Shown piece after piece: positions 3,468 to 62,009 of a DNA stretch of 64,000 nucleotides. Numbering within the stretch: position 1 is the first letter of the stretch; every line of letters begins with the position of its first letter. The stretch is from Gemmataceae bacterium (GTDB lineage Bacteria; Planctomycetota; Planctomycetia; Gemmatales; Gemmataceae). The stretch is taken from the NCBI GenBank assembly GCA_019748295.1, contig JAIEPT010000019.1:1-64000 (forward strand), in the 5' to 3' direction. Under the pieces are notes generated by a model. That model was given only the letters and a program-made list of their open reading frames with translations. It did no database searches and was not told where the DNA came from. The position numbers and the translations under genes were made by a program.

Positions 3468-3722
3468 TTAGTGCAGAAAGCCCTTGCGGCTCACGCCGAA
3501 CTGGTCGCCGACGGCGATGATGTTGCCCTCCGCGTCGAGGATGATCTCGATCACCTTCTCGCTATGCGCCTCGCGCCCCTCTTCGTCCGTCAGCGAGGTC
3601 GCGATTTTTCGCGTCTTGATGTCGATCAGACATGAGCGGACTTCATGGGGCCGCAACCTATGTAGCCCTCTCGCTCCGCGAGAGGTAAGCGGCAGAGCAC
3701 CACGCCGTCGCATGGCATTCAT
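3468..3722 (-). CDS. small conserved-looking protein with repeat-derived N-terminus
   Basis: The longest ATG frame gives 84 residues, but about the first 22 are encoded by palindromic repeat C (LTSRGARGLHR is its translation). A shorter form starting at a TTG at 3656 would give 62 residues: RPHEVRSCLIDIKTRK, EEGREAHSEKVIEII, EGNIIAVGDQFGVSRK. The C-terminal part reads as a compact beta-rich domain of unknown function. It lies downstream of, and on the same strand as, the 121-residue gene at 3781-4146, with the repeat between them. I do not recognise the family. The start codon is uncertain because of the repeat. Confidence 0.6.
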   Translation of the reverse strand: MNAMRRRGALPLTSRGARGLHRLRPHEVRSCLIDIKTRKIATSLTDEEGREAHSEKVIEIILDAEGNIIAVGDQFGVSRKGFLH

Positions 3723-3757
3723 CCGCTTACCTCTGGCGGAGCGAGAGGGCTACATAG
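3658..3757. repeat. palindromic repeat family C
   Basis: An inverted pair: CTATGTAGCCCTCTCGCTCC...GAGAGGTAAGCGGC and its complement, with about 25 bases between arms. A second copy is at 15734-15833. Confidence 0.9.
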
Positions 3758-12590: not shown

Positions 12591-12653
12591 CGTGGCGACA
12601 AGTTTATTAACTTGTCGGTTTGGAATTCGAACAAGTTGATAAACTTGTTCCCA
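12591..12653. repeat. palindromic repeat family E
   Basis: CGTGGCGACAAGTTTATTAA plus an inverted arm ending TAAACTTGTTCCCAC. The same family recurs at 15671-15724 (degenerate) and three times at 59181-59550. Confidence 0.9.
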
Positions 12654-15602: not shown

Positions 15603-15952
15603 CCCCCCTCTCCCCTTGGGGAAGAGGGCTGAGGGTGAGGGGTCGGCCCCTCGCGGAGATTCGATTGTTTCGTGGCGACAAGTTTATCGAACTTGTCGGA
15701 TTCGGATTTCGAACCAGGTTGATTGCCCCGCTTCTATGTAGCCCTCTCGCTCCGCGAGAGGTAAGCGGCTGAATGCCACGCCGTCGCCTGGTTCGCTGCC
15801 GCTTACCTCTCGCGGAGCGAGAGGGCTACATAGAAGCAACCTCCCATCGCGGCTGACCTCACGCGGAGCGTGAGGACTACTCTCGACACATCGCGGCACG
15901 GCGCCGCCCCCTCACCCCCGGCCCCTCTCCCTCAAGGGGAGAGGGGAGCAGA
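15603..15952. repeat. cluster of repeat families A, E, C, D and A
   Basis: Five palindromic repeats fill the whole portal-protease gap: A at 15603-15642, degenerate E at 15671-15724, C at 15734-15833, D at 15846-15885 and A at 15907-15950. The ribosome site GGAGAAATC precedes the next ATG at 15970. Confidence 0.9.
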
Positions 15953-18521: not shown

Positions 18522-19385
18522 ATGGCCAACCTCATCACTCGCGCTCGCGCGCTTCGCAATCTCAACAACCTCACGCCGACCGCCGACGACGAGACGACCA
18601 TCGACGGCCTGATCGCGGCGTGCAGCAACGCGATCGAGAAGCATTGCCGGCGTTCATTCGTCGTCGCCTCCTACGACGAGTCGCATGAAGGGCCGGGCCG
18701 GCGCGAACTCTTGCTGCGGAAGTATCCGGTCGTGTCCGTGGATCGCGTACTCTACGATCCGTCCCCGGTCTTCCATGTCGTCAACACGTCCCCGAGCGTG
18801 CAGCGAGCGTGGGCGAAGGTCGCGGGCGGCGGCCTCGCGCTCAATCGCGTCGCCTCGGGGACGGCGACGACCGATACGCTCGCCTTCGCGAACTACACCA
18901 CGCTCGCCGCCCTGAAAGCCGCGATCGATGCCGTCGGCTCCGGATGGGCCGCCGAGGTGGTCCATGCCGACGACGCCAACCTGGCGACCGCGGATCTTAT
19001 CTCGACCCAGGGCGGATACGACGCCAAATTCCAACCCGCCGGACTGCGCATGCATCGCCGGCAACTCGCCGACTTCGACGTCGATACCGAGCGCGGCATC
19101 CTCTATCGCGGCTGGTATTTCGAAGACGGCGGCGACGGTGATGGCCCAATCTTTTCCGGCGGCCCTCGTTACTGGCGCGTCGTCTATTCGGCTGGATATG
19201 CGACAGTGCCCGAAGACGTGCAGGAAGCATGCGCCATGTATGTGGCTGCCGTCTACTGGCAGACGAAGCGCGATCCGGGCCTTGCGAACGAAAGCGTTTC
19301 CGGCCTGATCTCCCGCACGCCGCGCGGCGACCTCGCCGCCGGCGCTTTCCGCCTGCTCCGCCCCTACCGCAACCTTCGGGTTTAG
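18522..19385 (+). CDS. phage head-tail connector (gp6-like) protein
   Basis: A 287-residue protein. The N-terminal helices ITRARALRNLNNL, DDETTIDGLIAACSNAIEKHCRR (about 24-46) and the C-terminal PEDVQEACAMYVAAVYWQTKRD (about 227-248) match the gp6/connector family that docks under the portal. The middle (about 90-200) contains a beta-rich insertion (VASGTATTDTLAFANYTTLAALKAAID) not usual for the about 100-residue minimal connector. It follows the capsid gene directly, as in HK97-like phages. Assignment is by family pattern and order. Confidence 0.75.
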   Translation: MANLITRARALRNLNNLTPTADDETTIDGLIAACSNAIEKHCRRSFVVASYDESHEGPGRRELLLRKYPVVSVDRVLYDPSPVFHVVNTSPSVQRAWAKVAGGGLALNRVASGTATTDTLAFANYTTLAALKAAIDAVGSGWAAEVVHADDANLATADLISTQGGYDAKFQPAGLRMHRRQLADFDVDTERGILYRGWYFEDGGDGDGPIFSGGPRYWRVVYSAGYATVPEDVQEACAMYVAAVYWQTKRDPGLANESVSGLISRTPRGDLAAGAFRLLRPYRNLRV

Positions 19386-19568
19386 AGTGGTCCTCACGCT
19401 CCGCGTGAGGTCAGCGGCGATGCAAGCGCATTCCGTTTTGAGCACGCAGCGCGGCAAGTCTTCGCAGGTTCCCGATAGCGACGTATTTTTTCCGAGAACG
19501 CCTCGCGCTCAATGCGGGATGACATCGCATCGCCGCTGACCTCACGCGGAGCGTGAGGACCACTCTGG
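19384..19568. repeat. palindromic repeat family D, inverted pair
   Basis: GTGGTCCTCACGCTCCGCGT at the left is inverted at the right, separated by about 110 bases. The left arm overlaps the stop of the connector gene. Confidence 0.9.
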
Positions 19569-27100: not shown

Positions 27101-28030
27101 ACCAGGCCTCAAGGGCAAGGACGAACTCCGGTAGCCCGTTACAAATGGGGCTGGCGCACAATGTCGGTCAATCTTGGTCTTCGATCTTTAGTTTTTTCCC
27201 GTGCAGTATGGTAGTTGTCTACCTGAAAACTTCCTGTTTCGGTTCTGGCTGGTTGGTCCAGATTGTTAAGAGTTAAACTTTATCTTCCTAAACACTTCCG
27301 TCCAAACCAAGCATTTGACCAGATGCGAAGCATCTGGTCCTATCCGAACGAAGTGAGGATAGTCAGGGCATTGCCCCTTACCTGCCGATCAGGTTGGTGA
27401 GGCAGGTTGACCGCGTGCGCGTACCTTGCGGAAGGGTCAGGTACGGGTTGCGATGTGCTGGTGCGGTACTCCAGCCTGACTGTCCTCACTTCGTTCGGAT
27501 AGGACCAGATGCTTCGCATCTGGTCAAATGCTTCGTTTTTGGTTGTTCGTGCTGGTTAGTCTTGGTTGGTCTCGTCTGTATAAGCGCAACTTAAGACTAC
27601 CCTGCACCGCTTGTTTGAAATGCGGACAAGCTGTTGGCGACACCAAAAAACCGCAGAAAAGACTTGATATTGTTTGAGCGGGTATCCATGGGTTGCTACT
27701 CCCGCTTCGTATCGTCGCCACGCGCGCTCTTGACCATCCACGCCCTACGCAAGCTCAGGTCTCCACGCCCCGACATCACATCTATTCTGCTCAAATTCTT
27801 GCCGACTTCCAGACACCGTATCGGGTCGGGCTGGGTCTTTGCCGTTATTGACGTTTCGCCGTTGTCGAAGTTGCCAGTTGCGGAACTGTTTGGGTTCGGT
27901 TCCAGATGTTGTCCCGCCTCACGTGTATTTAACCCGCAAAGACAAGCAGAATAGTTTCAGAAGTTACAGTTAATATAGTATCGTCGGTTGAATTATCGAT
28001 TAGAGAAACCCACTTTACTGAATAAAAGCA
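27101..28030. other. AT-richer gene-free stretch of about 0.9 kb
   Basis: No convincing gene. The only long frame (27634-27954, plus) lacks a ribosome site and reads as noise. The stretch holds the foldback at 27311-27531 and scattered GGTTGGT/CTGGTTGG motifs. It could be a regulatory, replication or noncoding-RNA region. Confidence 0.6.
27311..27531. repeat. 57-bp near-perfect foldback
   Basis: 27311-27367 and 27475-27531 are inverted copies differing at one base that can still form G-U. Each arm contains its own perfect hairpin (GACCAGATGC/GCATCTGGTC). The 107-base interior has a CGTACC/GGTACG stem. No transposase is nearby. Confidence 0.9.
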
Positions 28031-32112: not shown

Positions 32113-32354
32113 GATGACTCTCCTTCTTGTCGAGGGTATCCAAACAAAATTGCTTGATGATACCGCATCGCAAAGCACTGGAAGTGCCGACAGTCGCTCT
32201 GAAAGCCTTGATCAGTTTGCCCCTGCTCGGAAAACCCTGGATTATCAAGCGTTTGCGGCAATCTGAAAGGCTGCGTTTTCCTAAATCGGCTTCCAATATC
32301 CCAACCGACAAGTACAATCGCGTTTGTGAATCTACAAATGATGTGGTGAACTTC

Positions 32355-33941
32355 ATGCCGACGCGACGTATCTTGTTTTCTTGGATCGGCCACGCGGATT
32401 TGCGGGCACTGGCGGCGACGTTGGCGGAAAGCGAGCAGCAGGAGGTTCTGAAGGGGATCAACCCGCCAAAGCCTTCGCCCGGTCAACCGGGGCCGTTGAA
32501 GTGCCTGCTCGACGCCGAACAGTTTGATGAAGTGCATCTCCTCAGCGATCACTCAACCGCCAAGAATCGCCTTTACCTCAAGTGGATCGGCAGCGACGCC
32601 GAACTTCATCCAGTCAAGCTGACCAATCCCACCGATTACCCGGAAGTCTTCAAGGTCGCTGACCGCGAACTCGCGTCGGTGGTCAATGTGCCCCGTCCGC
32701 ACCGAATTGATCTCTGCATTCATTTAAGCCCCGGCACGCCAACCATGACGGCGATCTGGCTGCTGCTCGGCAAGAGCAAGTACCCGGCGACGTTCTACCA
32801 GACGCACGACTGCAAAGCCTGGGTCACGAGCGTTCCGTTCGACCTGATGGTGGATTTCGTCCCGCAGGTGCTTCGAGACGCCGATGCCCGACTCCAACGA
32901 CTTTCGAGCGAAAGTCCCCAAGACGTAGCCGGTTTTGAAGGCATCGTTGGCGAGAGCCGAAGCCTCCGGGTCGCGGTGGGGCTGGCGCGGCGGGCGGCGC
33001 AGCGAGATGTGTCGGTGCTGATCCTTGGCGAAAGCGGCACTGGCAAGGAAAAGTTCGCTAGAGCCATCCATGACGCCAGCCCCCGCAAGGCGAAGAAGTT
33101 CGTCTCGATCAACTGCGCCGCCATATCCAGGGAGTTGCTCGAATCTGAACTGTTCGGCCATAAGAAAGGCGCGTTCACCGGAGCCGTCGAAGATCGACAC
33201 GGTGCCTTCAAGGAAGCTGATGGCGGCACGCTATTCTTGGATGAGATCGGCGAATGCGGCCCGGCGATGCAAGCCAAACTTCTTCGGGTGCTGCAACCGC
33301 CTGATGATGAACCCTGCCAGAGGGTCTTTTACCGGGTCGGCGAGTCGAAGCAAATCACCAGTGACGTCCGCGTTATCGCCGCCACGAACCGGGATTTGGT
33401 CGCCGCCATTGCTCGGAACGAGTTCCGGGACGACCTGTACTATCGTGTGGCGGCCATTACTTTAAAGCTGCCGCCTTTGCGGGAGCGCCGGGAAGACATT
33501 CCGTTGCTCGTGCCAAAGCTCCTCGGCCACATCAATGAGAACTTCGAGAAGCAGGAACCCGGCTACAAGCACAAAAAACTTTCTACTTCCGCCATGACGT
33601 TTGTTCGGAAGCATCCGTGGCCGGGCAATGTCCGGCAGTTGTTCAATACACTGCTGCAAGCGGCAGTGATGACGGACGGCGACGTGATTGACCGGCAGGA
33701 CGTTGCTGACGCCATTGCCGAAGTTCCGGGCAAGGCATCGGTCGATCTGATGGAGCAGCCGCTAGGCGAAGGCTTCGTATTGACCGATTTTCTCGAAGAA
33801 ATCCAGCGCCACTACCTGATCCGTGGCATGAAGGAGGCGGGCGGCGTGAAGACCAAAGCCGCCGAGCTTCTGGGCTACAAGAACTACCAGACACTCGCTG
33901 CCCAACTGGAGCGGCTAAAGGTCGAAGTCCCGACAGTCTGA
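32355..33941 (+). CDS. sigma-54-dependent activator with RtcR/CARF-like sensor domain
   Basis: 528 residues. The N-terminal about 185 residues resemble the CARF-type sensor of RtcR: ILFSWIGHADLRAL, FDEVHLLSDH, and LCIHLSPGTPTMTAIWLLLG (about 118-137), where the G-T-x-x-M turn is the expected ligand loop. The AAA+ domain has Walker A GESGTGKE (about 224-231), the sigma-54-contact loop GAFTGA (272-277), Walker B TLFLDEIGE (about 293) and sensor RVIAATNRDL. The C-terminal Fis-like helix-turn-helix is AAELLGYKNYQTLAAQLE (about 503-520). It should bind a nucleotide-type signal and activate the -24/-12 promoter that lies 15 bases after its stop, ahead of hsdR. Confidence 0.88.
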   Translation: MPTRRILFSWIGHADLRALAATLAESEQQEVLKGINPPKPSPGQPGPLKCLLDAEQFDEVHLLSDHSTAKNRLYLKWIGSDAELHPVKLTNPTDYPEVFKVADRELASVVNVPRPHRIDLCIHLSPGTPTMTAIWLLLGKSKYPATFYQTHDCKAWVTSVPFDLMVDFVPQVLRDADARLQRLSSESPQDVAGFEGIVGESRSLRVAVGLARRAAQRDVSVLILGESGTGKEKFARAIHDASPRKAKKFVSINCAAISRELLESELFGHKKGAFTGAVEDRHGAFKEADGGTLFLDEIGECGPAMQAKLLRVLQPPDDEPCQRVFYRVGESKQITSDVRVIAATNRDLVAAIARNEFRDDLYYRVAAITLKLPPLRERREDIPLLVPKLLGHINENFEKQEPGYKHKKLSTSAMTFVRKHPWPGNVRQLFNTLLQAAVMTDGDVIDRQDVADAIAEVPGKASVDLMEQPLGEGFVLTDFLEEIQRHYLIRGMKEAGGVKTKAAELLGYKNYQTLAAQLERLKVEVPTV

Positions 33942-33970: not shown

Positions 33971-34037
33971 CTTAGACTCACAAATCATCTTGTGTGATCT
34001 TGAACAGACGCGGCGGCTCGCATCGGCAGAGGCGTTT

Positions 34038-37000
34038 ATGCAATCGAAGAACTTTGAGTTCCTACGACCGACGTGGGCGGATTTGGCGGAACTCGGCGCT
34101 TTCGCCGAGCAATACGCCAACCCCGACCCACAGAGCGCCGTAGCCAAGCTACGAAACTTTGCCGAGCAGATCGTCCTGTTCATCTACCACAAGCACGGGC
34201 TGCCGAAACCCTTTCAGCCAAATCTTAACGACCTGCTGACCGCCGCCGCATTCGTCCAGGCGGTCCCCAGGGTCATCGTCTCCAAGTTGCATACGCTCCG
34301 CATCCAGGGCAACAAGGGAGCGCACGGAGAAACGGTCCTGTCGCAGTCGGCGATCATGCTTCTTCAGGAAGCCTTTGAGCTTGGCCGCTGGATGCACATC
34401 AATTACGCCAATGGCAAGAAAGACGATTGTCCAGCGTTCAATGCTCCCAGCCCTGGCGAAGCAACCGAGATCGAGAAGAAGCTCAAGAAGGAGAAGACGT
34501 CAATCCTGCAGCTGTACGCTGCTCAGGAAGCCGAGATGCATAAGCTCTTGGCGGACCTCGAAGCGACTCGCTCGAAGGCGAAAGTCGCCGAGGAGACGGT
34601 CGCACAACTCCAAGCCGTGCAAACTCACGGCCAACAAGTTGCCGACGCCCTGGCGTTCGATGAGGCCACGACCCGTCATCGTCTCATCGACACTGCCCTG
34701 GTTTCCGCCGGATGGAATGTCGGGGCCAAGGGCGCGAACACGGAGCAGGTCGGCCAGGAGATCGAAGTCGATCACCAACCGACCGCCAGCAAGAAGGGCA
34801 AGGCCGATTACGTTTTATGGGGCGACAACGGCAAGCCCGTCGGCGTGATCGAGAGCAAGAAAACCGCCGTTGATCCAGAAGTCGGTCGCACCCAGGCCAA
34901 GTGCTATGCCGATGGCTTGGAAAAGGCGCACGGCCAGCGGCCCGTCATCTTCTACACGAACGGTTACGACATCTGGATGTGGAACGACGCTGCGGGCGAG
35001 CCGCCCCGCAAGCTCTACGGTTTCTACTCGCCCGAAAGCCTGCTGTACCTGCTCTATCAGCGGACCAACAAAGAGTCGCTGGCCAAAACCGCTCCGAGTC
35101 CATTGATCGCCGGGTACATGTATCAGATCGAGGCAATCAAGCGGGTAGTCGAACGATTTGCCGCAAAGCACCGGCATGCTTTGATTGTGATGGCGACCGG
35201 GACCGGCAAGACCCGCGTGGCGATCTCGCTTTGTGACGTGTTGCTGCGTGCGAAGTGGGCCAAACGGATTCTGTTCCTCTGCGACCGTAAGGAACTCCGC
35301 AAACAGGCGCACAACACTTTCAAGGGGCATCTGCCCGGTGAACCTCGCACTTATGTCACGTCTGCCACGTCGAAGGATCGTGACAAGCGCATCTACCTCG
35401 CCACCTACCCGGCGATGATGGAGTGCTACGAGTCGTTCGACGTGGGGTTCTTCGACCTGATCATCGCCGACGAATCGCACCGCAGCATCTATAACCGCTA
35501 CCGGGAACTGTTCGCTCACTTCGACTGCCTGCAAGTGGGACTGACGGCCACCCCGGTCGAGTTCATCGCCCGCAACACCTACAAGATTTTCGGCTGCGAA
35601 GATCGTGACCCCACGGCCTACTTCAGCTTCGAGGATGCCATCAACAGCGTCCCGCAGTGGCTCGTGCCGTTCGAGGTTATCACGCACACGACCCCGTTCT
35701 TGCGCAAGGGAATCAAGTATTCGGAGATGTCGCCCGAACAGCGGCAGCAGCTCGAAGAAGACGAGGCGGCTCCCGCCGCCGTTGAGTTCGATCAAGCCGA
35801 CGTGGACAAGGCAGTGTTCAACAAGGACACCAACCGGGTGATCCTGCGAAATCTGATGGAAAACGGGATCAAAGACACCACTGGCACACGGGTAGGCAAG
35901 TCGATCATCTTCGCCCGCAACCACAACCACGCCATCCTGCTGCAAAACCTGTTTGACGAGATGTACCCGCAGTACGGTGGGCAGTTCTGCCGGGTCATCG
36001 ACAACTACGACCCCCGTGCCGAAGAACTGATTGATGACTTCAAAGGCGATGGGAACAACCCGGAACTGACCATCGCCATCTCGGTGGACATGCTCGACAC
36101 CGGCATCGACGTGCCAGAGATCGTGAATCTCGTCTTCGCCAAGCCGGTCTACTCGTACGTCAAGTTCTGGCAGATGATCGGGCGAGGAACCCGCCTCTGC
36201 GAAAACTTGTTTGGGCCGGACAAGCACAAGACGCACTTCCTGATCTTCGATCACTGGAAGAACTTTGAGTATTTCGACCAGCACTACCAAGCCGCCGAGC
36301 CGAAGCAGTCCAAGTCGTTGCCGCAGATCGTCTTCGAGAACCGCATCAGGTTGGCCGAAACTGCGCTGCATCAAGCGAAGCCCGAAGTGTTCGAGATGGC
36401 GATTGACCTGATCGCCAAGGATATCGCTGATTTGCCGGGCAAAACCATCGCCGTGAAGGAAAAGTGGAAGGAGATCAAAGCCGTCAGCAACCAGGACCGG
36501 CTGCGGCAGTTCGACGCCGCCACCAAGAACATGCTGCTGCACGAGATCGCCCCGCTCATGCAGTGGCGCAACATCGGGGGCAACGAGGCGGCGCACAAGT
36601 TCGATCTGCTCGTCTGCCGAATACAGACCGAACACTTGAAGAAGTCGAGCAGCTTCGAGGACTTGAAGATCAACCTCCAAGACCAGCTCAACGACCTGCG
36701 CATGAACTTGTCCCAGGTGAAGGCCGTGGCTCCGCTGATTGTGGAGGCCCGCACGAACGACTTCTGGATCGGCATAAGCGTCCAGAAACTCGAAGACCTA
36801 CGGGGCAAGCTCCGGGGCGTGGTGCAATATCGTCAGGGCGGCGGCGGAGGCAGTGGCCCGTTGCCGCCAAAGGTCATCGACATCAAGGAAGACCCCTCGC
36901 TAATCGAGCGCAAGAAACACGCCGTCAAGCTCGAAGGGCTGCAACTCGCCGCGTACCGCAACCGGGTTGAGAAGGTTCTGCGAGATTTGTTTGAAACGAA

Positions 37001-37439
37001 CGATACGCTCAAGCGAATTAAGGCAGGCCAGCCGGTCAGTGACTCCGACCTGGACTCGCTGACCTCGCTCGTGCTGACGCAAGACCCGATGCTGAACCTG
37101 CACGATCTCGTGGAGTATTACCCCGACTGTGCCGGGCACTTGGACCTCGCCATTCGCAGCATCATCGGCCTCAATGCGGCGGCGGTCGGCAAACGCTTCA
37201 CAACTTTCGTACAGCAGCACCCGACGTTAAACTCGGCGCAGATACGGTTTCTGGACCTCCTCCAGAACCACATCGCCAAGTACGGCTCCATCGAGCTCGA
37301 CCGGCTCTACGAAGCTCCGTTCACCACCATTCATACCGACAGCATTGACGGCCTGTTCCCGGATGAGGATCAGGCGACCGAGATCATCGAGATCATCAAG
37401 CAGTTTCAGCCGATCAAGGAAGGGACATCGAAGGCATGA
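34038..37439 (+). CDS. hsdR: type I restriction enzyme, R subunit
   Basis: 1133 residues from the ATG at 34038, with AGAGG upstream; a TTG-start extension to 33990 would begin too close to the predicted transcript start. The N-terminus has a DUF4145-like helical part ([18 protein letters not shown]), then the PD-(D/E)xK nuclease with KADYVLWGD and VGVIESKKT (about 255-273). The SF2 helicase motor has [11 protein letters not shown] (about 383) and [10 protein letters not shown] (about 474), with motif VI IGRGTRL near 715. An EcoEI-type C-terminal domain follows. It translocates DNA and cleaves unmodified invaders with HsdM and HsdS. It overlaps hsdM by 4 bases. Confidence 0.93.
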
Positions 37440-38950
37440 TTACCGGCACGCTACGCAACCAGATCGACAAGCTCTGGACCGAATTCTGGACCGGGGGCAT
37501 CACCAACCCGCTCACGGTCATCGAACAGATTTCGTTCCTGATGTTCTCCCGTCTGCTTGACATCACCGAGACACGGGCCGAGAAGCGGTCGTCCCGCCTG
37601 AGCAAGCCCTTCAAGGGGCAGTTCAGCGTCAAGGAGCAGAAACTCCGCTGGTCAAACTTCAAGAACTTGCCCGCCGAGCAGATGCTCAAGACGGTGCGGG
37701 ACGAAGTGTTCCCGCACTTCCGCAACCTCGGCGACAGCGAATCGACCTTCGCCGAGTACATGACCGACGCCCAACTTCTCATTCAAAAGCCGAGCCTGCT
37801 TGTATCGGCGGTCAACATGATCGACGCCTTGCCGCTGACAGAAGGCGACACCAAGGGCGACCTTTACGAGTACCTGCTCGGCAAGTTGACCACGGCGGGT
37901 ATCAACGGCCAGTTCCGCACGCCCCGTCACATCATCCGGCTTATGGTCGATCTGATCGAACCGAAGCCGAACGAGATCATCGGCGATCCGGCCTGTGGCA
38001 CGGCGGGCTTCCTCGTCGGCGTCATGCAGCACTTGCTCGAAAAATACACGTCGCCCCAGGGCATCGTCACCCACGACGACGGCCAAAAGACCTACACCGG
38101 CGACCTGCTGGAACCCTACCGCAAGCACATTCAAACGCAGTTGTTCCACGGCTACGACTTCGACGCCACGATGCTCCGTATCGCCGCCATGAACCTGATG
38201 CTGCACGGCGTTGATTCGCCCGACATCCACTACCAGGACACCCTCAGTAACTCGTTCCCGGAAAAGTTCCCCAAACAGGCCACGGACGGCTTCGACGTGA
38301 TTCTGGCGAATCCGCCCTTCAAGGGCAGCCTGGACGAGTCCGACGTGCATTCCTCGATCACCGGCAAGGTGAAGACGAAGAAGACCGAACTCCTCTTCGT
38401 CGCCCTCATTCTGCGAATGCTCAAGCTCGGCGGGCGGGCGGCGATCATCGTGCCGGACGGCGTGCTGTTCGGTTCATCCAACGCCCACCGTGATCTCCGC
38501 AAGCTGCTCGTAGACGAGAACCAACTTGAGGCGGTGATCTCCATGCCGTCCGGTGTCTTCAAGCCGTATGCGGGTGTATCCACGGCCATCATGATCTTCA
38601 CCAAGGGCGGCAAGACCGACCGGGTGTGGTTCTACAAGATGGAGTCGGACGGCTTCAGCCTAGACGACAAGCGGGAGAAGATCGGCGACGGCACGGGCGA
38701 TCTACCGGACATCCGGGAGAAATGGTTCGCTAGGGAGAAGGCGAAGAAGAACGACCGCAAGGCCAAGCACTTCTTCGTGCCGGTTAAGGAGATTCGGGAC
38801 AACAAGTTTGACCTGTCGATCAACCGCTACCGGGAAACCGAGTACGAGGAGGCCACGTTCGACCCACCGCAGGAGATCATGCAGCGGCTCCGCTCACTGG
38901 ATGAGGAAGTCAGCCGTGACATGGACGAATTGGAGGCGCTGCTGAAATGA
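37436..38950 (+). CDS. hsdM: type I restriction-modification methyltransferase, M subunit
   Basis: 504 residues. An N-terminal helical HsdM domain ([31 protein letters not shown]) precedes the N6-adenine methylase domain with motif [14 protein letters not shown] (about 183-195) and catalytic NPPF (about 289-293). The region after it, [22 protein letters not shown], is typical. It methylates adenine in the HsdS-specified site using S-adenosylmethionine. It is coupled by 4-base overlaps to hsdR and hsdS. Confidence 0.94.
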
Positions 38951-40191
38951 GCGTTGCATTCCCCTTGGGCAAACTCGAATTTGATCCACCATCAAATTGG
39001 ACCCAAACTTTCGTGGGCCAAATTTGCGATGAGAACGACGGCGACGTGCAAACCGGGCCGTTCGGAAGTCAACTTCATGCCTCTGACTATTCAGACGAGG
39101 GTGTTCCTCTCGTCATGCCACAAGATATGGCTGACGGCAAGATTCTGACAACGAAGATCGCCCGTGTTGATTCATCGCATGTCGAGCGCCTGAGTAAACA
39201 CATGCTCCGCACAGGTGACATTGTTTTCAGCAGGCGAGGCGATGTAGCACGCTTCGCCATAGTGAACTGTGCTGAGCAAGGATGGCTGTGCGGAACCGGC
39301 AGTGTGCGGATTCGCCTAAACAGTCCGCTCATCGACACCCTGTTTCTCCGCCGTTTTCTCCAGCTTGACTCGGTTGGAAAGTGGCTCAACCACCAAGCAA
39401 AGGGTATCACGATGCCCAACCTCAACACGGGCATCCTTCGAGCCTTGCCACTGTATTTCCCTTCCCTGCCCGAACAGCGTCAGATCGCCGCCATTCTCGA
39501 CAAGGCCGACGCCGTACGTCGCAAGCGAGAGGAAAGCATCCGGTTGACCGAGGAATTGCTGCGCTCCACCTTCCTGGAAATGTTCGGCGATGTGGCGACC
39601 GCCCCGGCGAAGCCGCTCGCAGAACTTGCTGAGGTAGTGTCCGGCGTCACGAAAGGCCGCAAGCTAAATGGCCGGGCAGTGACAGTGCCATACTTGCGAG
39701 TTGCGAATGTCCAAGATGGGTTCCTCAATCTGGATGAGATCAAGACGATTGAGGCGCTTCCCAGCGAAGTTGAAGCACTGGCGCTCAAAGCGGGCGACAT
39801 CGTGATGACTGAAGGCGGCGATCACGACAAGCTCGGTCGTGGGGCAATCTGGACAGGAGCAGTTCAGAACTGCATCCACCAGAATCATGTCTTTCGTGTT
39901 CGAGTGAACCAGAGGCATATCTTGCCCGATTACTTCGCTACCTATTTGCGGACCAGTGAGGCCAAGCAGTATTTCTTACGCTGCGCCAAGAAGACGACGA
40001 ATCTTGCCAGCATCAACATGACTCAGTTGCGTGGCCTTCCCGTGCCTCTTCCGTCCGTCCGGCTTCAGCAGAAATTCCAGGATGCTGCAAAGGCAATCTA
40101 TGAATTGTCGGCGGCTCGGAAAAAGGCGGCGCATGAGTCGCAATCGCTTTTCGGCTCACTCGTCCAACGGGCCTTTCGAGGAGAGCTATGA
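38947..40191 (+). CDS. hsdS: type I restriction-modification specificity subunit
   Basis: 414 residues with two target-recognition domains and conserved spacer helices. TRD1 (about 10-170) ends [20 protein letters not shown]. The first conserved helix [29 protein letters not shown] follows at about 178-206. TRD2 runs about 215-375, ending [16 protein letters not shown]. The closing helix is [30 protein letters not shown]. It defines the bipartite site recognised by HsdM and HsdR; the recognised sequence cannot be inferred. The gene is complete. Confidence 0.92.
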
Positions 40192-40772
40192 GCCACATCC
40201 TCGACCTCGATAAAGCGATCAACGAGATCATCGCCTCGAACGAGCGCATCCAGACGTTCTGGACCAAAGAAGCGTCCGGCTGGTCGCCCAGAGAGACAGC
40301 CGAGTTGCTGGAGAGCTCTCGGATGGATCGCCTCGTGTCCTTGTCCCGGAGCCTGCGTCTTTGGGCCGAGCCGTGCGCCGAGGAAGACCGAGAAGGCCGA
40401 CTAATCCTGGCCTGGGCCAATCTCGGCATACTCGTTGAAGGCACGATGACGTGGTTCCTATGCGTCTTCGAGAGCGATTACGCCAAGCAACCCATGAAGG
40501 CGAAGGCTGGCTTCGACCTGCGACCGAACCGGCTGCGTTTCGAGGAAATGTGCCGCTTCTTCAGCGAACATGTTTGGATCGACTCCCAGCGTGCCGAGTG
40601 GGACGACTGGCTTGCAAATGTCCGCAACTTCCGCAACGCCGTCCACGCCTTCAACCACCGGCACATCGGCGACTGGAACGATTGGCAGGATGCCGTGGTG
40701 CGTTACCACGACTTCATCGGTGAGTTGGACGGACGAGTGCCATACCCGGAAGCCAGGGACTACTACGCCTGA
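40188..40772 (+). CDS. HEPN-like protein in the restriction-Gabija operon
   Basis: 194 residues, all-helical. GRLILAWANLGILVEGTMTWFL and VRNFRNAVHAFNHRHIGDW (about 145-163) fit a HEPN-type R-x4-6-H arrangement (R-N-F-R-N-A-V-H). HEPN proteins are often RNases or abortive toxins, but some are inactive partners. It overlaps hsdS by 4 bases, so it is expressed with the restriction system. Homologues next to type I systems are plausible but I cannot check. HEPN assignment is moderate. Confidence 0.62.
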   Translation: MSHILDLDKAINEIIASNERIQTFWTKEASGWSPRETAELLESSRMDRLVSLSRSLRLWAEPCAEEDREGRLILAWANLGILVEGTMTWFLCVFESDYAKQPMKAKAGFDLRPNRLRFEEMCRFFSEHVWIDSQRAEWDDWLANVRNFRNAVHAFNHRHIGDWNDWQDAVVRYHDFIGELDGRVPYPEARDYYA

Positions 40773-40798
40773 TGGTGTCGAGGTCGGAGAATTGTGAA

Positions 40799-41626
40799 AT
40801 GACAATCACGTTCAACCAACGGATACCGCCGTTCGCCGCCGAACGCCTGGAGGCCATCAGTAAAGTCCTTGCCGACACGAACGAGGGGCTTACCGGCACA
40901 GAGATCGACCATCTCCTGCGGAGCTGCAACATCTCCGACCCGACGCCGGACATGACCAAGTGGAAGCGGCTGCACAATGCTTTCGTGGAGTTCCAGAACG
41001 AGCATCAAGTGGGCAACCACGTTGTCGTCTTCATCAAACGGTCAATGGACCCGGCTCGATATGTTGGGAAGCCGCAGGTCTTTCGTTATCGCCGGGACCG
41101 CCTGAACTCGGTGTTGGCATTCTGTGGCTACACGCTTGGCGAGGATGGTCAACTTCGCAAGGCGGACGCCGCTCGCACGATCAGCGAGGCGCTGGAGCGG
41201 GCCAACCGCCTGCACGCCGCCCTGATCCAGCGCAGCGTCCACGCCGACGTGCTGAAGTTCTGCAAGGCGGAACTGCTCGAAGAGAACTACTTCCACGCCG
41301 TCTTCGAGGCCATGAAAAGCGTAACGGCCAAGATCAGGACGCTGACCGGCATGACCGGCGACGGTTGCGACCTCGTTCACGACGCCTTCGGCCAGAAGTA
41401 CGGCGACCCACTCCTGGTGATTAACTCGTTCCAGACCGAGACACATAAGGGTGAGCAATACGGCTTCATGAATCTGCTCAAAGGGTTATACGGCACGATA
41501 CGCAACCCTCTCGCCCACACGCCGAAAACCGAGTGGGACATGACGGAGCAGGACGCCCTCGACATCCTGACCATGATCTCTTTGGTCCACAGGAAGCTGG
41601 ATCAAGCTCGCCGGTTCCGCCCGTGA
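40799..41626 (+). CDS. TIGR02391-family (Ymh) HEPN-like protein
   Basis: 275 residues; the start MTITFNQRIPPFAAERLEAI is chosen because GGAG lies 11 bases upstream. The C-terminal domain (about 140-270) matches TIGR02391/Ymh: HADVLKFCKAELLEENYFHAVFEAMKSV, DLVHDAFG, GEQYGFMNLLKGLYGTIRNP and the R-N-P-L-A-H motif followed by W-D-M-T-E-Q-D-A-L-D. R-x4-H is the HEPN catalytic pattern. The N-terminal half (about 1-130) includes helical and wHTH-like pieces (LTGTEIDHLLRSCNI). Predicted RNase or effector-like component of the operon. It lies 26 bases after the previous gene. Confidence 0.78.
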   Translation: MTITFNQRIPPFAAERLEAISKVLADTNEGLTGTEIDHLLRSCNISDPTPDMTKWKRLHNAFVEFQNEHQVGNHVVVFIKRSMDPARYVGKPQVFRYRRDRLNSVLAFCGYTLGEDGQLRKADAARTISEALERANRLHAALIQRSVHADVLKFCKAELLEENYFHAVFEAMKSVTAKIRTLTGMTGDGCDLVHDAFGQKYGDPLLVINSFQTETHKGEQYGFMNLLKGLYGTIRNPLAHTPKTEWDMTEQDALDILTMISLVHRKLDQARRFRP

Positions 41627-41649
41627 CTTTTGAAGAGGCCTGGTAGATC

Positions 41650-43500
41650 ATGAGAATATCCCGGATCGAGATCACGAACTTCAGAAACTTCCGGCACCTG
41701 GATGTGACTATCGGCATGCACGCCGTCATCGTAGGAGAGAACAAGATCGGCAAATCGAATTTATTGTTCGCCCTTCAACTCATCTTGGACCCTTCGTTAC
41801 CGGACTCCGAGCGGTGCTTAAGGCTCGAAGACTTTTGGGACGGATTAGAGCGGCCTCTGAACCAGAACGACCGAATCGAAGTATCGGTAGAACTATCAGA
41901 CTTCGACGACAACAATGACCATTTGGCGCTAGTCGGAGAGTTCCTGATTCAACCCGATCCGATGGTCGCTCGACTGACGTACGTTTACCAACCAGTTCCG
42001 AATCTTCCTGACGGGCCGAAGAAGGAAAGTGACTACGAGTTCGCCATTTACGGCGGCGGGCGACCAGAGTGCCGGGTCGGTTACGAGTTACGAAAAAAAC
42101 TGCCAATGAACATGCTCCCGGCCCTCCGGGACGCAGTAAGTGACCTGGCGAATTGGCGGAAGTCTCCGCTCCGCCCATTGCTCGATAAGATCGCCGGGGA
42201 AATGGACCGAGATCGGCTCAATGAACTTGCAGAAGGCGTGTCGAAAGCGACGGCTACTATCGCCGGAAGCGACGAAGTAAGGTCTGTCGGCGACCTCATC
42301 TCTCAAAGACTGTTGGAGATGGTCGGCTCGCTGCACGCATTGGAGATGTCGCTCGGATTTTTACCATCCGATGCGGAAAGACTGATCCGATCACTTCGCC
42401 TGTTCATCGACGGCGGGGAGCGTACCGTTGCAGATGCAAGCCTTGGTTCGGCGAATCTGTTGTATCTCGCTCTCAAAGCACTACAACTTGACCAACAGGT
42501 GAGCGAATGCGAACGCAGTCATACCTTTCTCGCCATTGAGGAGCCGGAGGCCCATCTGCATCCCCACGTCCAACGACGGGTTTATCGAGCCTTCCTTCGA
42601 CCACGCCAAGCCGTGCCAAACGGCGAGGCAGGCCCGGGAAAGCCTTCGCCAGAGATGACGATTCTTCTCACTACCCACTCTCCGAGTATCGTTAGTGTCT
42701 CCCCAGTTCACTCGCTCGTCCTCCTTCGCAAAACTGCCGATTTGACCTCAACCCTGGGCGTCTCGACGGCCAAGCTCGAATTGGATGCTGCCGAAGCCGA
42801 CGACATCGAGCGGTATCTCGACGTGACCAGGGGTGAAATGCTGTTTGCCAAAGGGGTGCTGCTCGTTGAAGGCGAGGCCGAGCAATACATGCTGCCAGTA
42901 CTGGCGGAGTTAAATGGCTACAACCTTGATGAGCTGGGAATTACTGTATGCTCGGTGGCGGGGACGCACTTTCTCCCATATCTGAAGTTTCTGGGGCCGA
43001 CTGGATTGAACATCCCCTACGCCGTGATAACGGATGCGGACCCGAACGTGCAGATCACCGGATTAAGCCGCATCCGACAACTGCTTGAATTTCTCGCCCC
43101 CGACGATTTGGAAGAACTGGCGGATGAAGACGAAATAATCGACCTTGGAAAACGACATGGCATCTTTCTGACTGAGGACACTTTCGAGGTTGCTCTCTTT
43201 CGTGGAGGAAGGCACGCCAGCTTCGCTACGACGATGGGCGAGTTGTCTTCCAATGCCGCAGCTAAGACTCGTGCAACCTCCTGGAAGGCGAACCCTACAA
43301 CGTTAGACGTAGACAAGATGCTGAAGGACATAAATGCCATTGGTAAAGGGCGGTTCTCGCAACGGTGGGCACTGCGCATAAGTCGCTCAAAAAGCAAAAG
43401 CTGCCCGACGTCAGTTTCGGAGGCACTGAAACATGTCACAAGTCGCATCCAGGTCCAGGCTCTACCTGAAAGCAGCGACGGAACTTCGGAAGAACCGTGA
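41650..43500 (+). CDS. gajA: Gabija protein GajA, OLD-family ATPase-TOPRIM nuclease
   Basis: 616 residues. The ABC ATPase half has Walker A GENKIGKSN (about 30-38), a signature-containing region DASLGSANLLYLALKAL (about 262-278), and Walker B LAIEEPEAHLHPHV (about 294-307) with TTHSP (about 339). The TOPRIM half has VLLVEGEAEQYMLP (about 403-416) and VITDADPNVQ (about 458). GajA is a nucleotide-gated endonuclease that acts with the GajB helicase against phages. It overlaps gajB by 68 bases. GajA looks intact. Confidence 0.85.
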   Translation: MRISRIEITNFRNFRHLDVTIGMHAVIVGENKIGKSNLLFALQLILDPSLPDSERCLRLEDFWDGLERPLNQNDRIEVSVELSDFDDNNDHLALVGEFLIQPDPMVARLTYVYQPVPNLPDGPKKESDYEFAIYGGGRPECRVGYELRKKLPMNMLPALRDAVSDLANWRKSPLRPLLDKIAGEMDRDRLNELAEGVSKATATIAGSDEVRSVGDLISQRLLEMVGSLHALEMSLGFLPSDAERLIRSLRLFIDGGERTVADASLGSANLLYLALKALQLDQQVSECERSHTFLAIEEPEAHLHPHVQRRVYRAFLRPRQAVPNGEAGPGKPSPEMTILLTTHSPSIVSVSPVHSLVLLRKTADLTSTLGVSTAKLELDAAEADDIERYLDVTRGEMLFAKGVLLVEGEAEQYMLPVLAELNGYNLDELGITVCSVAGTHFLPYLKFLGPTGLNIPYAVITDADPNVQITGLSRIRQLLEFLAPDDLEELADEDEIIDLGKRHGIFLTEDTFEVALFRGGRHASFATTMGELSSNAAAKTRATSWKANPTTLDVDKMLKDINAIGKGRFSQRWALRISRSKSKSCPTSVSEALKHVTSRIQVQALPESSDGTSEEP

Positions 43501-45329
43501 GCAATGGCAGGCGTATGAGTCGACCAGTCATTGCGTCGTGTTGGCTGGGCCGGGCAGCGGCAAAACCAAGGTGTTGACAACTAAACTGGCCCGCCTGATC
43601 TCGGAAGAAATCACGCCGCCCCGTGGCGTTGCATGCCTGACGTACAATAACGAATGTGTAAAGGAACTGACCGGGAGACTGGCCCGCCTTGGTATCCGCA
43701 ACTCTACCAATGTGTTCGTCGGCACAGTGCATTCCTTCTGCCTCAAGAATATAATTCTGCCTTACGGGAAGATGGGAGGCTTAGAGACCCTGACAAAACT
43801 CAGGCAGGTCCCCATTTTACCCAACTTTCCAGGGGTTTTGTCAGCGTCTCTTAGGTCTGCCTGATCAGTTTCGGATCGCCACGCCATCTGATTCAGAGAA
43901 GCTCTTCATTCAGGCGAAGGATCGAGTAGTCGGGGTGGATGAGCGACCGGATGAATGGCGGCGTCGATGCGACATGTACCGGCGAACTTATTTGGATCGT
44001 GAAAGTCTGGAATGGAGAGACGAAAACAAGCAGTGCGCCGACCTTATTGAAGATTACGAACGAAGACTTCGGAAATCCGGCTTGATCGACTTTGATGATA
44101 TGGTGCTTCTTGGCCTCCGACTCGTTGAGACCCACCCTTGGGTGCGGAAGGTCTTGGCCGCACGATTTCCAGCGCTCGTCGTTGACGAATATCAAGACCT
44201 CGGTCTCACCCTTCACCGCCTCGTAATTTCGCTGTGTTTCTCCCCCAACAGCAAATGCCGCTTGTTTGCAGTGGGCGACCCTGATCAGTCGATTTACTCG
44301 TTCACCGGGGCGCAGCCGGAACTCTTGCAAAACCTTGCGGAGAATGAATTGGTTCAGAAGGTACACCTTCGACTGAACTATCGAAGCCGGTCGAATATTG
44401 TCACGGCATCTGAAGTCGCCCTCGGCGAGAGCCGAGGCTATGAAGCTGCAACCGGTGAAGGCGGCGTCATTGAATTCCACAAATGCAGTAATGGCCTTCA
44501 GCACCAAGCAATGCACGCCTGCGAGGAGCTGATTCCAAGAGTGCTAAAGTCCGGGATGGCCCGAAGCATCGGGGAAATCGCGATCCTATATCGAGATAAG
44601 AATCAGGGGGACGTTGCCGCCGAATGCGCTGCCGCTGCCGCTCTACAGTTCGTCCGATCAGACGCAAATGCTCCTTACCGTTGTACGCCGATGACGATGT
44701 GGTTAGAAATTTGTGCGGCTTGGTGTGTTAGTGGATGGAAGGTTGGAGAGCCAGGGTTGTCCGAGCTATTGGCAAAGTGGCGAGCGTTCAACGGCTCAAC
44801 GACGAGCGACAATGAGAACTTGGATAGTTGCCGGAAACTCGTTGGGTTTCTCTTTTCGCATCGTGACACCAAGAAATCACTCGGCGAGTGGCTGAATGGC
44901 TTGAACAAATCCTGTCTGGAAGGTCTGTTCGAGCGTGAGCCAATGCTCGGCGATGAAGCCTTGAAGGTAGCAGGCATCATGAGCCTTTGTGAAAAGGGGA
45001 AGAAGCTGGCCGAGTGGTCCGTAGGCCAATTCGGCGGGCAGGGCGGCTCACCGGATCACTTGAATCTTATGACCTTTCACAGTGCGAAAGGGTTGGAGTT
45101 CGACGTGGTGTTTATGATCGGCCTTGATCAAGGCGTCATTCCAAACTATCGCGAGAGCAGTCCGGCATCGAAACGAGAGCCAAGGCGCCTATTTTACGTC
45201 GCTCTAACCAGGGCGAGGCACGAAGTCCACATGATGTACTCTGGTTGGCGCGATTCTCCATACGGTCGGAAGTCGGACGGACCTTCTGAGTTTCTTCTGG
45301 AAGTACAGCGTTCGGTTTCAGGAAAATAG
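43433..45329 (+). pseudogene. gajB: Gabija helicase GajB, broken by a small insertion
   Basis: UvrD-like helicase in two frames. Frame one (43433-43864) has Walker A LAGPGSGKTKVL (about 38-49) and GTVHSFC. Frame two (from about 43854 to 45329) has FPALVVDEYQDL, FAVGDPDQSIYSFTG, LRLNYRS, MTFHSAKGLEFDVVFM and YVALTRARHEV. A 70-base insertion at 43784-43853 shifts the frame. Removing it with one TTA reads MGG-LGLPDQFRIATPS continuously. GajB is needed for Gabija function, so the system is probably inactive unless the insertion excises or a short GajB suffices. Confidence 0.85.
43784..43850. mobile_element. 67-bp MITE-like insertion in gajB with TTA target duplication
   Basis: Terminal inverted repeats GAGACCCTGACAAAAC (43784-43799) and GTTTTGTCAGCGTCTC (43835-43850) match at 15 of 16. 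TTA flanks both sides (43781-43783 and 43851-43853). Three-base TNA duplications are typical of IS1031/ISL2-type IS5-family elements, so a non-autonomous derivative is likely. The donor is not in this window. Confidence 0.88.
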
Positions 45330-49347: not shown

Positions 49348-49553
49348 CAGGTCACAAGTCACCGAAACGACCGCAAGAAACAGGTGGCCGAAATGCTCGG
49401 TTCGCTCACCGGCGGCACGGCCCTGCACCTGGCTCACCTTCAAAGGTCTGCCGCCGGACAAATGACCAACGTTGCGATCTGGACGAAGCGGGAGCCATTC
49501 GGGGCTGCTTAGACGGCCTGGGCATCAAAACGACCGTCATGGCCGCTACGTGA
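49337..49553 (+). pseudogene. multiply frameshifted small gene remnant
   Basis: Fragments in three frames read in order as one protein: MSIDRSQVTETTARNRWPKC, LTFKGLPPDK, MTNVAIWTKREPFG and CLDGLGIKTTVMAAT. It overlaps the end of the preceding gene. At least two shifts are required, so this is decay rather than one error. The inference rests on pattern continuity only. Confidence 0.45.
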
Positions 49554-58963: not shown

Positions 58964-59242
58964 ATGTCGCTCGCTCGTTTCGTTGCGCAGGAATCGGTTC
59001 GCGTCAAAAAATCGATTCGCCGTGCGGATACGTTTCTCGATCAGGCCCGCTGCCCCTGGTGCCGCCATCCGTTGATCGCGCGGGTCGGCAAGCTGGGACC
59101 GTACTTCCACTGCGGCTGCATCGAAAGTAGTCCTCACGCTCCGCGTGAGGTCAGCCGCGACGCAAGGTCACACGAGTCTTTCGTGGCGACAAGTTTATTA
59201 ACTTGTCGGAATGGTCATAAAGAGACGTTTCGAACAAGTTAA
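58964..59242 (+). CDS. small zinc-ribbon protein with repeat-derived C-terminus
   Basis: MSLARFVAQESVRVKKSIRRADTFLDQ is a basic helix, followed by CPWCRHPLIARVGKLGPYFHCGC (about 30-52), a four-Cys zinc ribbon. The end of the frame (from about 54: SSPHAPREVSRDARSHESF) is the translation of repeats D and E, so the natural stop was probably lost or shifted by repeat insertion. Total 92 residues. It begins 10 bases after the small-terminase-like gene, so it is the last gene of the capsid module. Confidence 0.65.
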   Translation: MSLARFVAQESVRVKKSIRRADTFLDQARCPWCRHPLIARVGKLGPYFHCGCIESSPHAPREVSRDARSHESFVATSLLTCRNGHKETFRTS

Positions 59243-59590
59243 TAAACTTGTTTCCACGGTTCGTCTGACCTCACATCGCGGCAGACCTCACGCGGAGCGT
59301 GAGCACTACGCTCGCTGCCTTTCGTGGCGACAAGTTTATTAACTTGTCGGGATTGGATTTTGAGAAGCTATCTAAACAAGTTAATAAACTTGTTTCCACG
59401 GCCGTCTGACCTTGCATCGCGGCTGACCTCACGCGGAGCGCGAGGACTACTCTCGCTGCCTTTCGTGGCGACAAGTTTATTAACTTGTCGGGATTGGATT
59501 TTGAGAAGCTATCTAAACAAGTTAATAAACTTGTTTCCACGGCCGTCTGACCTCGCATCGCGGCTGACCTCACGCGGAGCGTGAGGATTA
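59129..59590. repeat. tandem array of repeat families D and E
   Basis: Family D arms (CCTCACGCGGAGCGTGAGG) alternate with family E inverted pairs at about 59181-59260, 59322-59400 and 59463-59541. The last two E-D units are near-identical direct repeats with a 141-base period. Any ORF here is repeat translation. Confidence 0.92.
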
Positions 59591-61716: not shown

Positions 61717-61797
61717 GAGATTCCTTTCCAAGCCGCGTCATGCGGTCTGGGCATTCTAAAGCAGTTTGCAGATTGATGTCGCAACCGACGATGCCCT

Positions 61798-61996
61798 CTG
61801 TAGGGAACGCCCTCCGTGGCGTTCCGCCGAACTGGACGATGTCGGCCCCAGTAATGCATCTGCCGCTCTGCCGCAACCGGCTAAGCGATCATGTGTGGCG
61901 TCAGGGGCAAGCCGAAAGTCGCGGGTTGTTGGATGATGGGGGCCGACATCGTCCAGTTCGGCGGAACGCCACGGAGGGCGTTCCCTACAGAGGGCA
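61798..61996. repeat. inverted repeat with GTAGGGAACGCCCTCC arms
   Basis: GTAGGGAACGCCCTCCGTGG at the left is inverted at 61970-61993, with a second inner pair around ACTGGACGATGTCGGCCCC. About 110 bases lie between arms. Nothing else is seen from 61717 to 62009. Confidence 0.88.
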
Positions 61997-62009
61997 TCGT
62001 CGGTCGTCG

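What the first reader, a model, noticed from the sequence alone, without database searches (positions are those of the whole stretch)
43781..43853. A 67-bp MITE-like element interrupts gajB and its exact removal restores the frame
Terminal inverted repeats of 16 bases (15 matching), TTA on both sides, and the frame MGG-LGLPDQFRIATPS continuous after deleting 70 bases. This is a clean, recent knockout of the Gabija helicase while gajA is intact. It could be selection against an expensive defence, or a reversible switch if a related transposase can excise it.
Basis: seen in the sequence. Interest (0 to 1): 0.7.

Follow-up and report, generated by a model that had tools for sequence, protein, structure and literature searches.

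The report
Tiny mobile element breaks phage-defence gene
A 67-base piece of mobile DNA, one of a previously unlabelled family that I found in related bacteria together with the full-length element likely to move it, has landed in the helicase gene of a Gabija anti-phage system and shifted its reading frame, so this copy of the defence is probably switched off.

Summary
A 67-bp element (43784-43850) with 16-bp inverted ends (15/16) and a TTA target duplication interrupts gajB after codon 117. Intact homologues (about 50-60% identical) read straight across the site; gajA is full length. The element is not a local oddity. Relatives in the same bacterial family carry about 66-67-bp elements with the same ends and TTA/TAA duplications (22 of 95 genomes, own included). 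Some exist as identical copies at unrelated loci, so the family moved recently. A model trained without the window copy finds it at E=2e-11. Full-length insertion sequences of about 0.9 kb with near-identical ends (CAGACGCTGACAAAACC against GAGACGCTGACAAAACC) encode an IS5-family transposase. So this is an IS5-type MITE, resembling the IS1031 group (TNA duplication). The own draft assembly holds no second copy and no detectable transposase of this type. Loss of Gabija function is predicted from published work, not shown. The 'reversible switch' is untested: no excised form was seen, although 5-bp direct repeats (CTTAG) around a hairpin would allow rare slippage loss. Side finding: 66-bp members add 69 nt, which keeps frame, and two sit in frame inside real genes; the 67-bp member here adds 70 nt and cannot.

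The parts
43784..43850 (.). 67-bp MITE, IS5-type, inverted ends of 16-19 bp
   Evidence: model trained without it, E=2.2e-11
43784..43799 (+). left terminal inverted repeat GAGACCCTGACAAAAC
43835..43850 (-). right terminal inverted repeat GAGACGCTGACAAAAC (read on - strand)
43781..43783 (.). target-site duplication TTA, left
43851..43853 (.). target-site duplication TTA, right
43780..43784 (+). 5-bp direct repeat CTTAG, left (TTA plus one base each side)
   Evidence: sequence
43850..43854 (+). 5-bp direct repeat CTTAG, right
   Evidence: sequence
43433..43864 (+). 5' fragment of gajB (143 aa as read; 117 native residues with Walker A, then 26 residues from the element and shifted frame)
   Evidence: (PDLC00117 positions 3-119)
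43935..45329 (+). 3' fragment of gajB (464-aa ORF; helicase motifs II-VI; native residues 145-608); the native frame is open from 43794
   Evidence: (PDLC00117 positions 145-600)
41650..43500 (+). gajA, intact (616 aa, AAA + OLD-like TOPRIM)

Best explanation
The segment is a non-autonomous miniature transposable element of an IS5-type (IS1031-like) group. A transposase encoded elsewhere recognised its 16-19-bp inverted ends and inserted it at a TTA in gajB, duplicating the TTA (shown by anatomy and by relatives; the act of transposition is inferred). Element plus duplication adds 70 nt, which shifts the frame by one: translation leaves GajB after residue 117 and stops at 43862. The Walker A part (residues 1-117) is thereby separated from the DEXQD box and motifs III-VI (sequence shows). 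With no complete GajB the GajAB complex cannot form properly and Gabija defence is lost (inferred from published work on B. cereus Gabija), leaving an intact gajA. Reversion is possible in principle, by transposase excision or by RecA-independent slippage between the two CTTAG repeats across the hairpin, but was not observed.
For: Anatomy, unique in the window. Homologues without the insert. Family: 66-68-bp elements with the same ends and TTA/TAA duplications in relatives, found in 22 of 95 genomes of the bacterial family, own included; 46 of 59 measured copies have identical TTA or TAA duplications and 52 of 59 are 66 or 67 bp. A model built without the window copy finds it and nothing else in the window. 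Recent mobility: four identical 66-bp copies in one genome (G246) and four identical 67-bp copies in another (G285), with essentially unrelated flanks. Autonomous partner: 896-bp and 905-bp IS in G073 (L121 1079-1974, L123 741-1645; 98.8% identical, TAA duplications) ending CAGACGCTGACAAAACCC, transposase NF033580 IS5 family 4.3e-51, Pfam PF13340 + PF01609; further 0.88-0.96-kb IS with related ends and TNA duplications. MITEs and the transposase co-occur across genomes: 12 of 22 against 10 of 73, Fisher p=2e-4 (not corrected for phylogeny). TNA target preference of the IS1031 group: PMC12016507. Gabija needs GajB and the complex: PMC10781630, PMC10822852.
Against: No other copy in the own assembly and no match to the IS5-type transposase or to PF01609/PF13586 there, so the mobilising enzyme is not shown in this organism; the assembly has 399 contigs and 94% completeness, and repeats are often lost from such drafts. 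The inner sequence of the window copy differs from the common CCGTTTTCAAGG core of many relatives. A +1 frameshift inside 43794-43861 would give a near-complete GajB with 23 extra residues; no recognised shift signal was seen, but none was tested.
Confidence: 0.9

Rival explanations
1. Reversible switch: the element is excised often enough (by transposase, or by slippage between the CTTAG repeats) that the population is a mix of Gabija-on and Gabija-off cells, and this state is maintained by selection.
For: Target duplication is perfect, deletion between the CTTAG repeats exactly restores the frame, and the single strand folds into a strong hairpin (DNA -13 kcal/mol, z -3.5; RNA z -5.3), which is the classic set-up for RecA-independent precise loss (established knowledge of IS/Tn excision in E. 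coli).
Against: No excised form seen; the assembly is a single consensus and reads are not available. No matching transposase in the assembly. Slippage rates for such repeats are normally very low, and nothing indicates regulation.
Confidence: 0.06
2. Split or frameshifted GajB remains active: the two fragments associate, or a +1 frameshift in the overlap 43794-43861 yields a 631-aa GajB with 23 extra residues.
For: The element is free of stops in the upstream frame, and the downstream frame is open from 43794, so the frames overlap by about 68 nt. Other members of the family are read through in frame inside real genes.
Against: The second ORF begins at a GTG 70 nt downstream without a strong ribosome-binding site; no long slippery run; the break falls inside the conserved helicase core of a protein whose complex is required.
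Confidence: 0.04
3. Not a transposable element: a chance hairpin, regulatory stem-loop or assembly error.
For: Single copy in this assembly; transcript hairpin is strong.
Against: Same-sized family with TNA duplications in 21 other genomes, identical copies at unrelated loci, IS with the same ends; homologues lack the segment; independent model hit 2.2e-11.
Confidence: 0.01

Closest known systems
IS5-family MITEs, IS1031-like group (TNA target duplication)
   Same: Inverted ends matching a full-length IS5-type element, 3-bp TTA/TAA duplication, no coding capacity, size far below the parent.
   Different: Formal placement in the IS1031 group was not tested against ISfinder.
Rickettsia palindromic elements (PMC10969869)
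   Same: Short palindromic mobile elements found inside protein-coding genes; 66-bp members here keep frame (69 nt) and lie in frame in at least two genes.
   Different: No sequence relation tested; about 150 bp against 66 bp; here clear TNA duplications and an IS5-type parent; the gajB copy is 67 bp and breaks the frame.
MITE insertional inactivation, e.g. MITEAba12 in hns of Acinetobacter, MITEs in mcy of Anabaena (PMC10969869)
   Same: A MITE disrupts a chromosomal gene and abolishes its function.
   Different: Target is an anti-phage defence gene; function loss here is predicted only.
Gabija (GajA + GajB)
   Same: gajA and the two gajB fragments match PADLOC Gabija models, gene order as usual.
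   Different: gajB is interrupted by a frame-shifting element.

Membership tests
MITE | Short element with terminal inverted repeats and no coding capacity | tested here: met
   67 bp, 16-bp ends 15/16
MITE | Target-site duplication | tested here: met
   TTA both sides; homologues show the uninterrupted site
MITE | Repeated: several copies of the same element | tested here: inconclusive
   One copy in the own draft assembly; many copies, some identical, in relatives. Copy number is usual for MITEs rather than strictly required, and the own assembly is incomplete; the claim is 'member of a MITE family found across the bacterial family'.
MITE | Ends shared with an autonomous IS able to mobilise it | tested here: met
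   In relatives: L121, L123 with ends 15/16 identical to the right arm; not found in own assembly
IS5 family, IS1031-like group | IS5-type DDE transposase in the parent element | tested here: met
   NF033580 over its cut-off, PF13340 and PF01609, for the relatives' IS
IS5 family, IS1031-like group | 3-bp TNA duplication and GAG-type ends | tested here: met
   TTA and GAGAC... here; TTA/TAA in 46 of 59 copies; TNA preference from PMC12016507; GAG ends from my own knowledge of ISfinder groups
IS5 family, IS1031-like group | Phylogenetic placement among named IS1031 elements | not tested
   ISfinder not available
Gabija | Intact GajA (ATPase + TOPRIM) | tested here: met
Gabija | Intact GajB UvrD-like helicase | tested here: not met
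   Split at residue 117 by the element; so a Gabija remnant, not a complete system
Gabija | Anti-phage activity | not testable with these tools
   needs plaque assays

The most novel reading that the evidence does not exclude
The family comes in two size classes, 66 bp (adds 69 nt, keeps frame) and 67 bp (adds 70 nt, shifts frame). The first can be tolerated as a 23-residue insert in proteins, the second breaks genes but can be lost precisely, so 67-bp copies in defence genes such as gajB could act as rare, transposase- or slippage-driven on/off switches of immunity.
Probability: 0.06. Interest if true: 0.75.

Novelty: new member of a known kind. Interest (0 to 1): 0.42.

Why it matters
Defence systems are usually counted from gene models alone; a 67-bp insert turns a listed Gabija into a likely dead one without removing either hallmark. 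The work also turns a single odd hairpin into a family with a model, a tight size and full-length partners, which makes excision, mobility and the effect on Gabija testable. The frame-keeping 66-bp class would be a further case, beyond Rickettsia, of small mobile elements becoming parts of proteins.

Tried and rejected
Element against plasmids: nothing. End patterns in viral contigs: one single-ended chance hit, L037, and no pairs. Paired-end pattern in genome contigs: one Lachnospiraceae hairpin, L038, judged unrelated because the inner end bases differ and the host is remote; not pursued. Strict end patterns in 59 relatives and in 398 class genomes gave only unpaired hits; loosening to two mismatches with TTA included revealed the family. 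First set of IS loci by Pfam gave IS with TTA|GAG ends, but at most 10 of 16 bases like the element; superseded by L121/L123. Inversion of the inner segment as a switch: rejected, it leaves the 70-nt shift unchanged. Rfam: nothing. Open frames over most other copies are probably shadow frames in GC-rich DNA; only L169 and L194/L202 were accepted as genes. My boundary script misplaced a few ends (L193, L199, L206, L218, L220-L222), and it favours boundaries with matching triplets, so its duplication counts are descriptive.

Full report
What was checked. The ends GAGACCCTGACAAAAC and GAGACGCTGACAAAAC match at 15 of 16 positions. Counting one more base each side, the direct repeat is CTTAG. In 64 kb no other 16-nt inverted pair of this kind is bracketed by an identical TNA triplet, and 12 simulated windows of similar dinucleotide content had none. 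Folding is far stronger than in shuffles as RNA (z -5.3) and as DNA (z -3.5).

The gene. gajA (41650-43500) and both pieces of gajB match PADLOC Gabija models; the two gajB pieces cover positions 3-119 and 145-600 of the same model. With the flanks joined in a script, the frame is open for 608 codons. Homologues in other genomes, L028 and L029, are intact and run through the site without extra residues. As it stands, translation passes through the element, which has no stop in that frame, and ends at TGA 43862-43864. The downstream native frame is open from 43794, and its first start codon is GTG 43935. Walker A lies upstream of the break; the DEXQD box and motifs III-VI lie downstream.

What the element is. 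Strict searches found no second copy in the own assembly and only unpaired end matches in 398 genomes of the class. Including the TTA and allowing two mismatches in 95 genomes of the same family revealed paired ends. The fetched loci hold elements of 66-68 bp with TTA or TAA duplications and ends [GC]AGRCNCTGACAAAACC (alignment A3). Paired positions in the ends change together, as expected of inverted repeats kept by a transposase. A covariance model found members in 22 of 95 genomes, own included, with up to about 14 places per genome (matches are counted on both strands). Of 59 measured copies, 27 are 66 bp and 25 are 67 bp, and 46 have identical TTA/TAA duplications (the script favours such boundaries, so this is a description, not a test). 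A second model built without the window copy gives E=2.2e-11 for it and no other match in the window.

Mobility and partner. Genome G246 has four identical copies and a fifth at 98%, and G285 has four identical copies, with essentially unrelated surroundings. In G073 two full-length elements of 896 and 905 bp, 98.8% identical and flanked by TAA, end in CAGACGCTGACAAAACCC. The intact one (L123) encodes a transposase scoring above the curated cut-off for NCBIfam NF033580 (IS5 family) with PF13340 and PF01609. Related transposases in other genomes lie in elements of about 0.88-0.96 kb with similar ends and TNA duplications. Genomes with the MITE are enriched for this transposase (12 of 22 against 10 of 73, p=2e-4; 10 of 12 transposase genomes carry the MITE at a stricter cut chosen afterwards; shared ancestry not corrected). 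The own assembly shows neither this transposase nor any PF01609 or PF13586 match; it is a 399-contig draft, so absence is weak evidence.

Mechanism. Shown: element, duplication, frame shift, intact homologues, family, partner IS in relatives. Inferred: insertion in trans by an IS5-type transposase, and loss of Gabija function. The second inference rests on published work that GajB and the GajA-GajB complex are needed (PMC10781630, PMC10822852). GajA alone can cut DNA in vitro (PMC10781630), so a residual effect of gajA is not excluded.

Switch or wreck. Nothing here shows excision. The geometry (5-bp direct repeats around a hairpin) permits rare precise loss without transposase, by established knowledge of transposon excision in E. 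coli. I put a maintained switch at about 6%. Age cannot be dated: imperfect ends are no sign of age, since the four identical copies in G285 also match at only 16 of 19 positions.

Frame arithmetic. A 66-bp member plus its duplication adds 69 nt, 23 codons. Two cases sit in frame inside genes supported by Pfam: a methyltransferase in G246 (L169) and a HEAT-repeat protein in G098 and G073 (L194, L202), where gene and element are orthologous (88% identical), so the insert has been inherited. Forms without the insert were not examined. The 67-bp member in gajB adds 70 nt and shifts the frame.

Verdict. Real, well explained, and a new family of a known kind; of moderate interest.

Noticed in passing
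L194:901-972, L202:901-972 (genomes G098, G073): 66-bp members of the family lie in frame inside a HEAT-repeat protein at the same place in two genomes (23 extra residues, element 88% identical): an inherited, protein-coding MITE.
   Followed up: partly
L169:901-972 (genome G246): A 66-bp copy, identical to three others in that genome, lies in frame between a cysteine-rich N-terminal stretch and a methyltransferase domain.
   Followed up: partly
window 33990-45329: Defence island: HsdR 33990, HsdM 37436, HsdS 38947, an unknown ORF 40188, a Hypoth_Ymh (PADLOC PD-Lambda-3_B) protein 40772, gajA 41650, broken gajB; a phage-type integrase at 49472.
   Followed up: partly
window 27304-27538, 61782-62006, 19383-19567, 15729-15838, 3656-3757: Long, nearly perfect inverted repeats around short loops, unlike the gajB element; they lack TNA duplications.
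   Followed up: no
window 59126-59540 (also near 15700 and 12598-12648): Repeated palindromes ACAAGTTTATTAACTTGT / ACAAGTTAATAAACTTGT in tandem-like blocks of about 141 bp.
   Followed up: no
window 32127-33941: Sigma-54 activator-like protein with an unassigned N-terminal part, just upstream of the type I restriction genes.
   Followed up: no
L038:1704-1755: Lachnospiraceae hairpin ATTAGAGACTGTGAAAAAAC...GTTTTTCCACAGTCTCTT with similar outer ends; may be a remote IS end pair or a chance palindrome.
   Followed up: no
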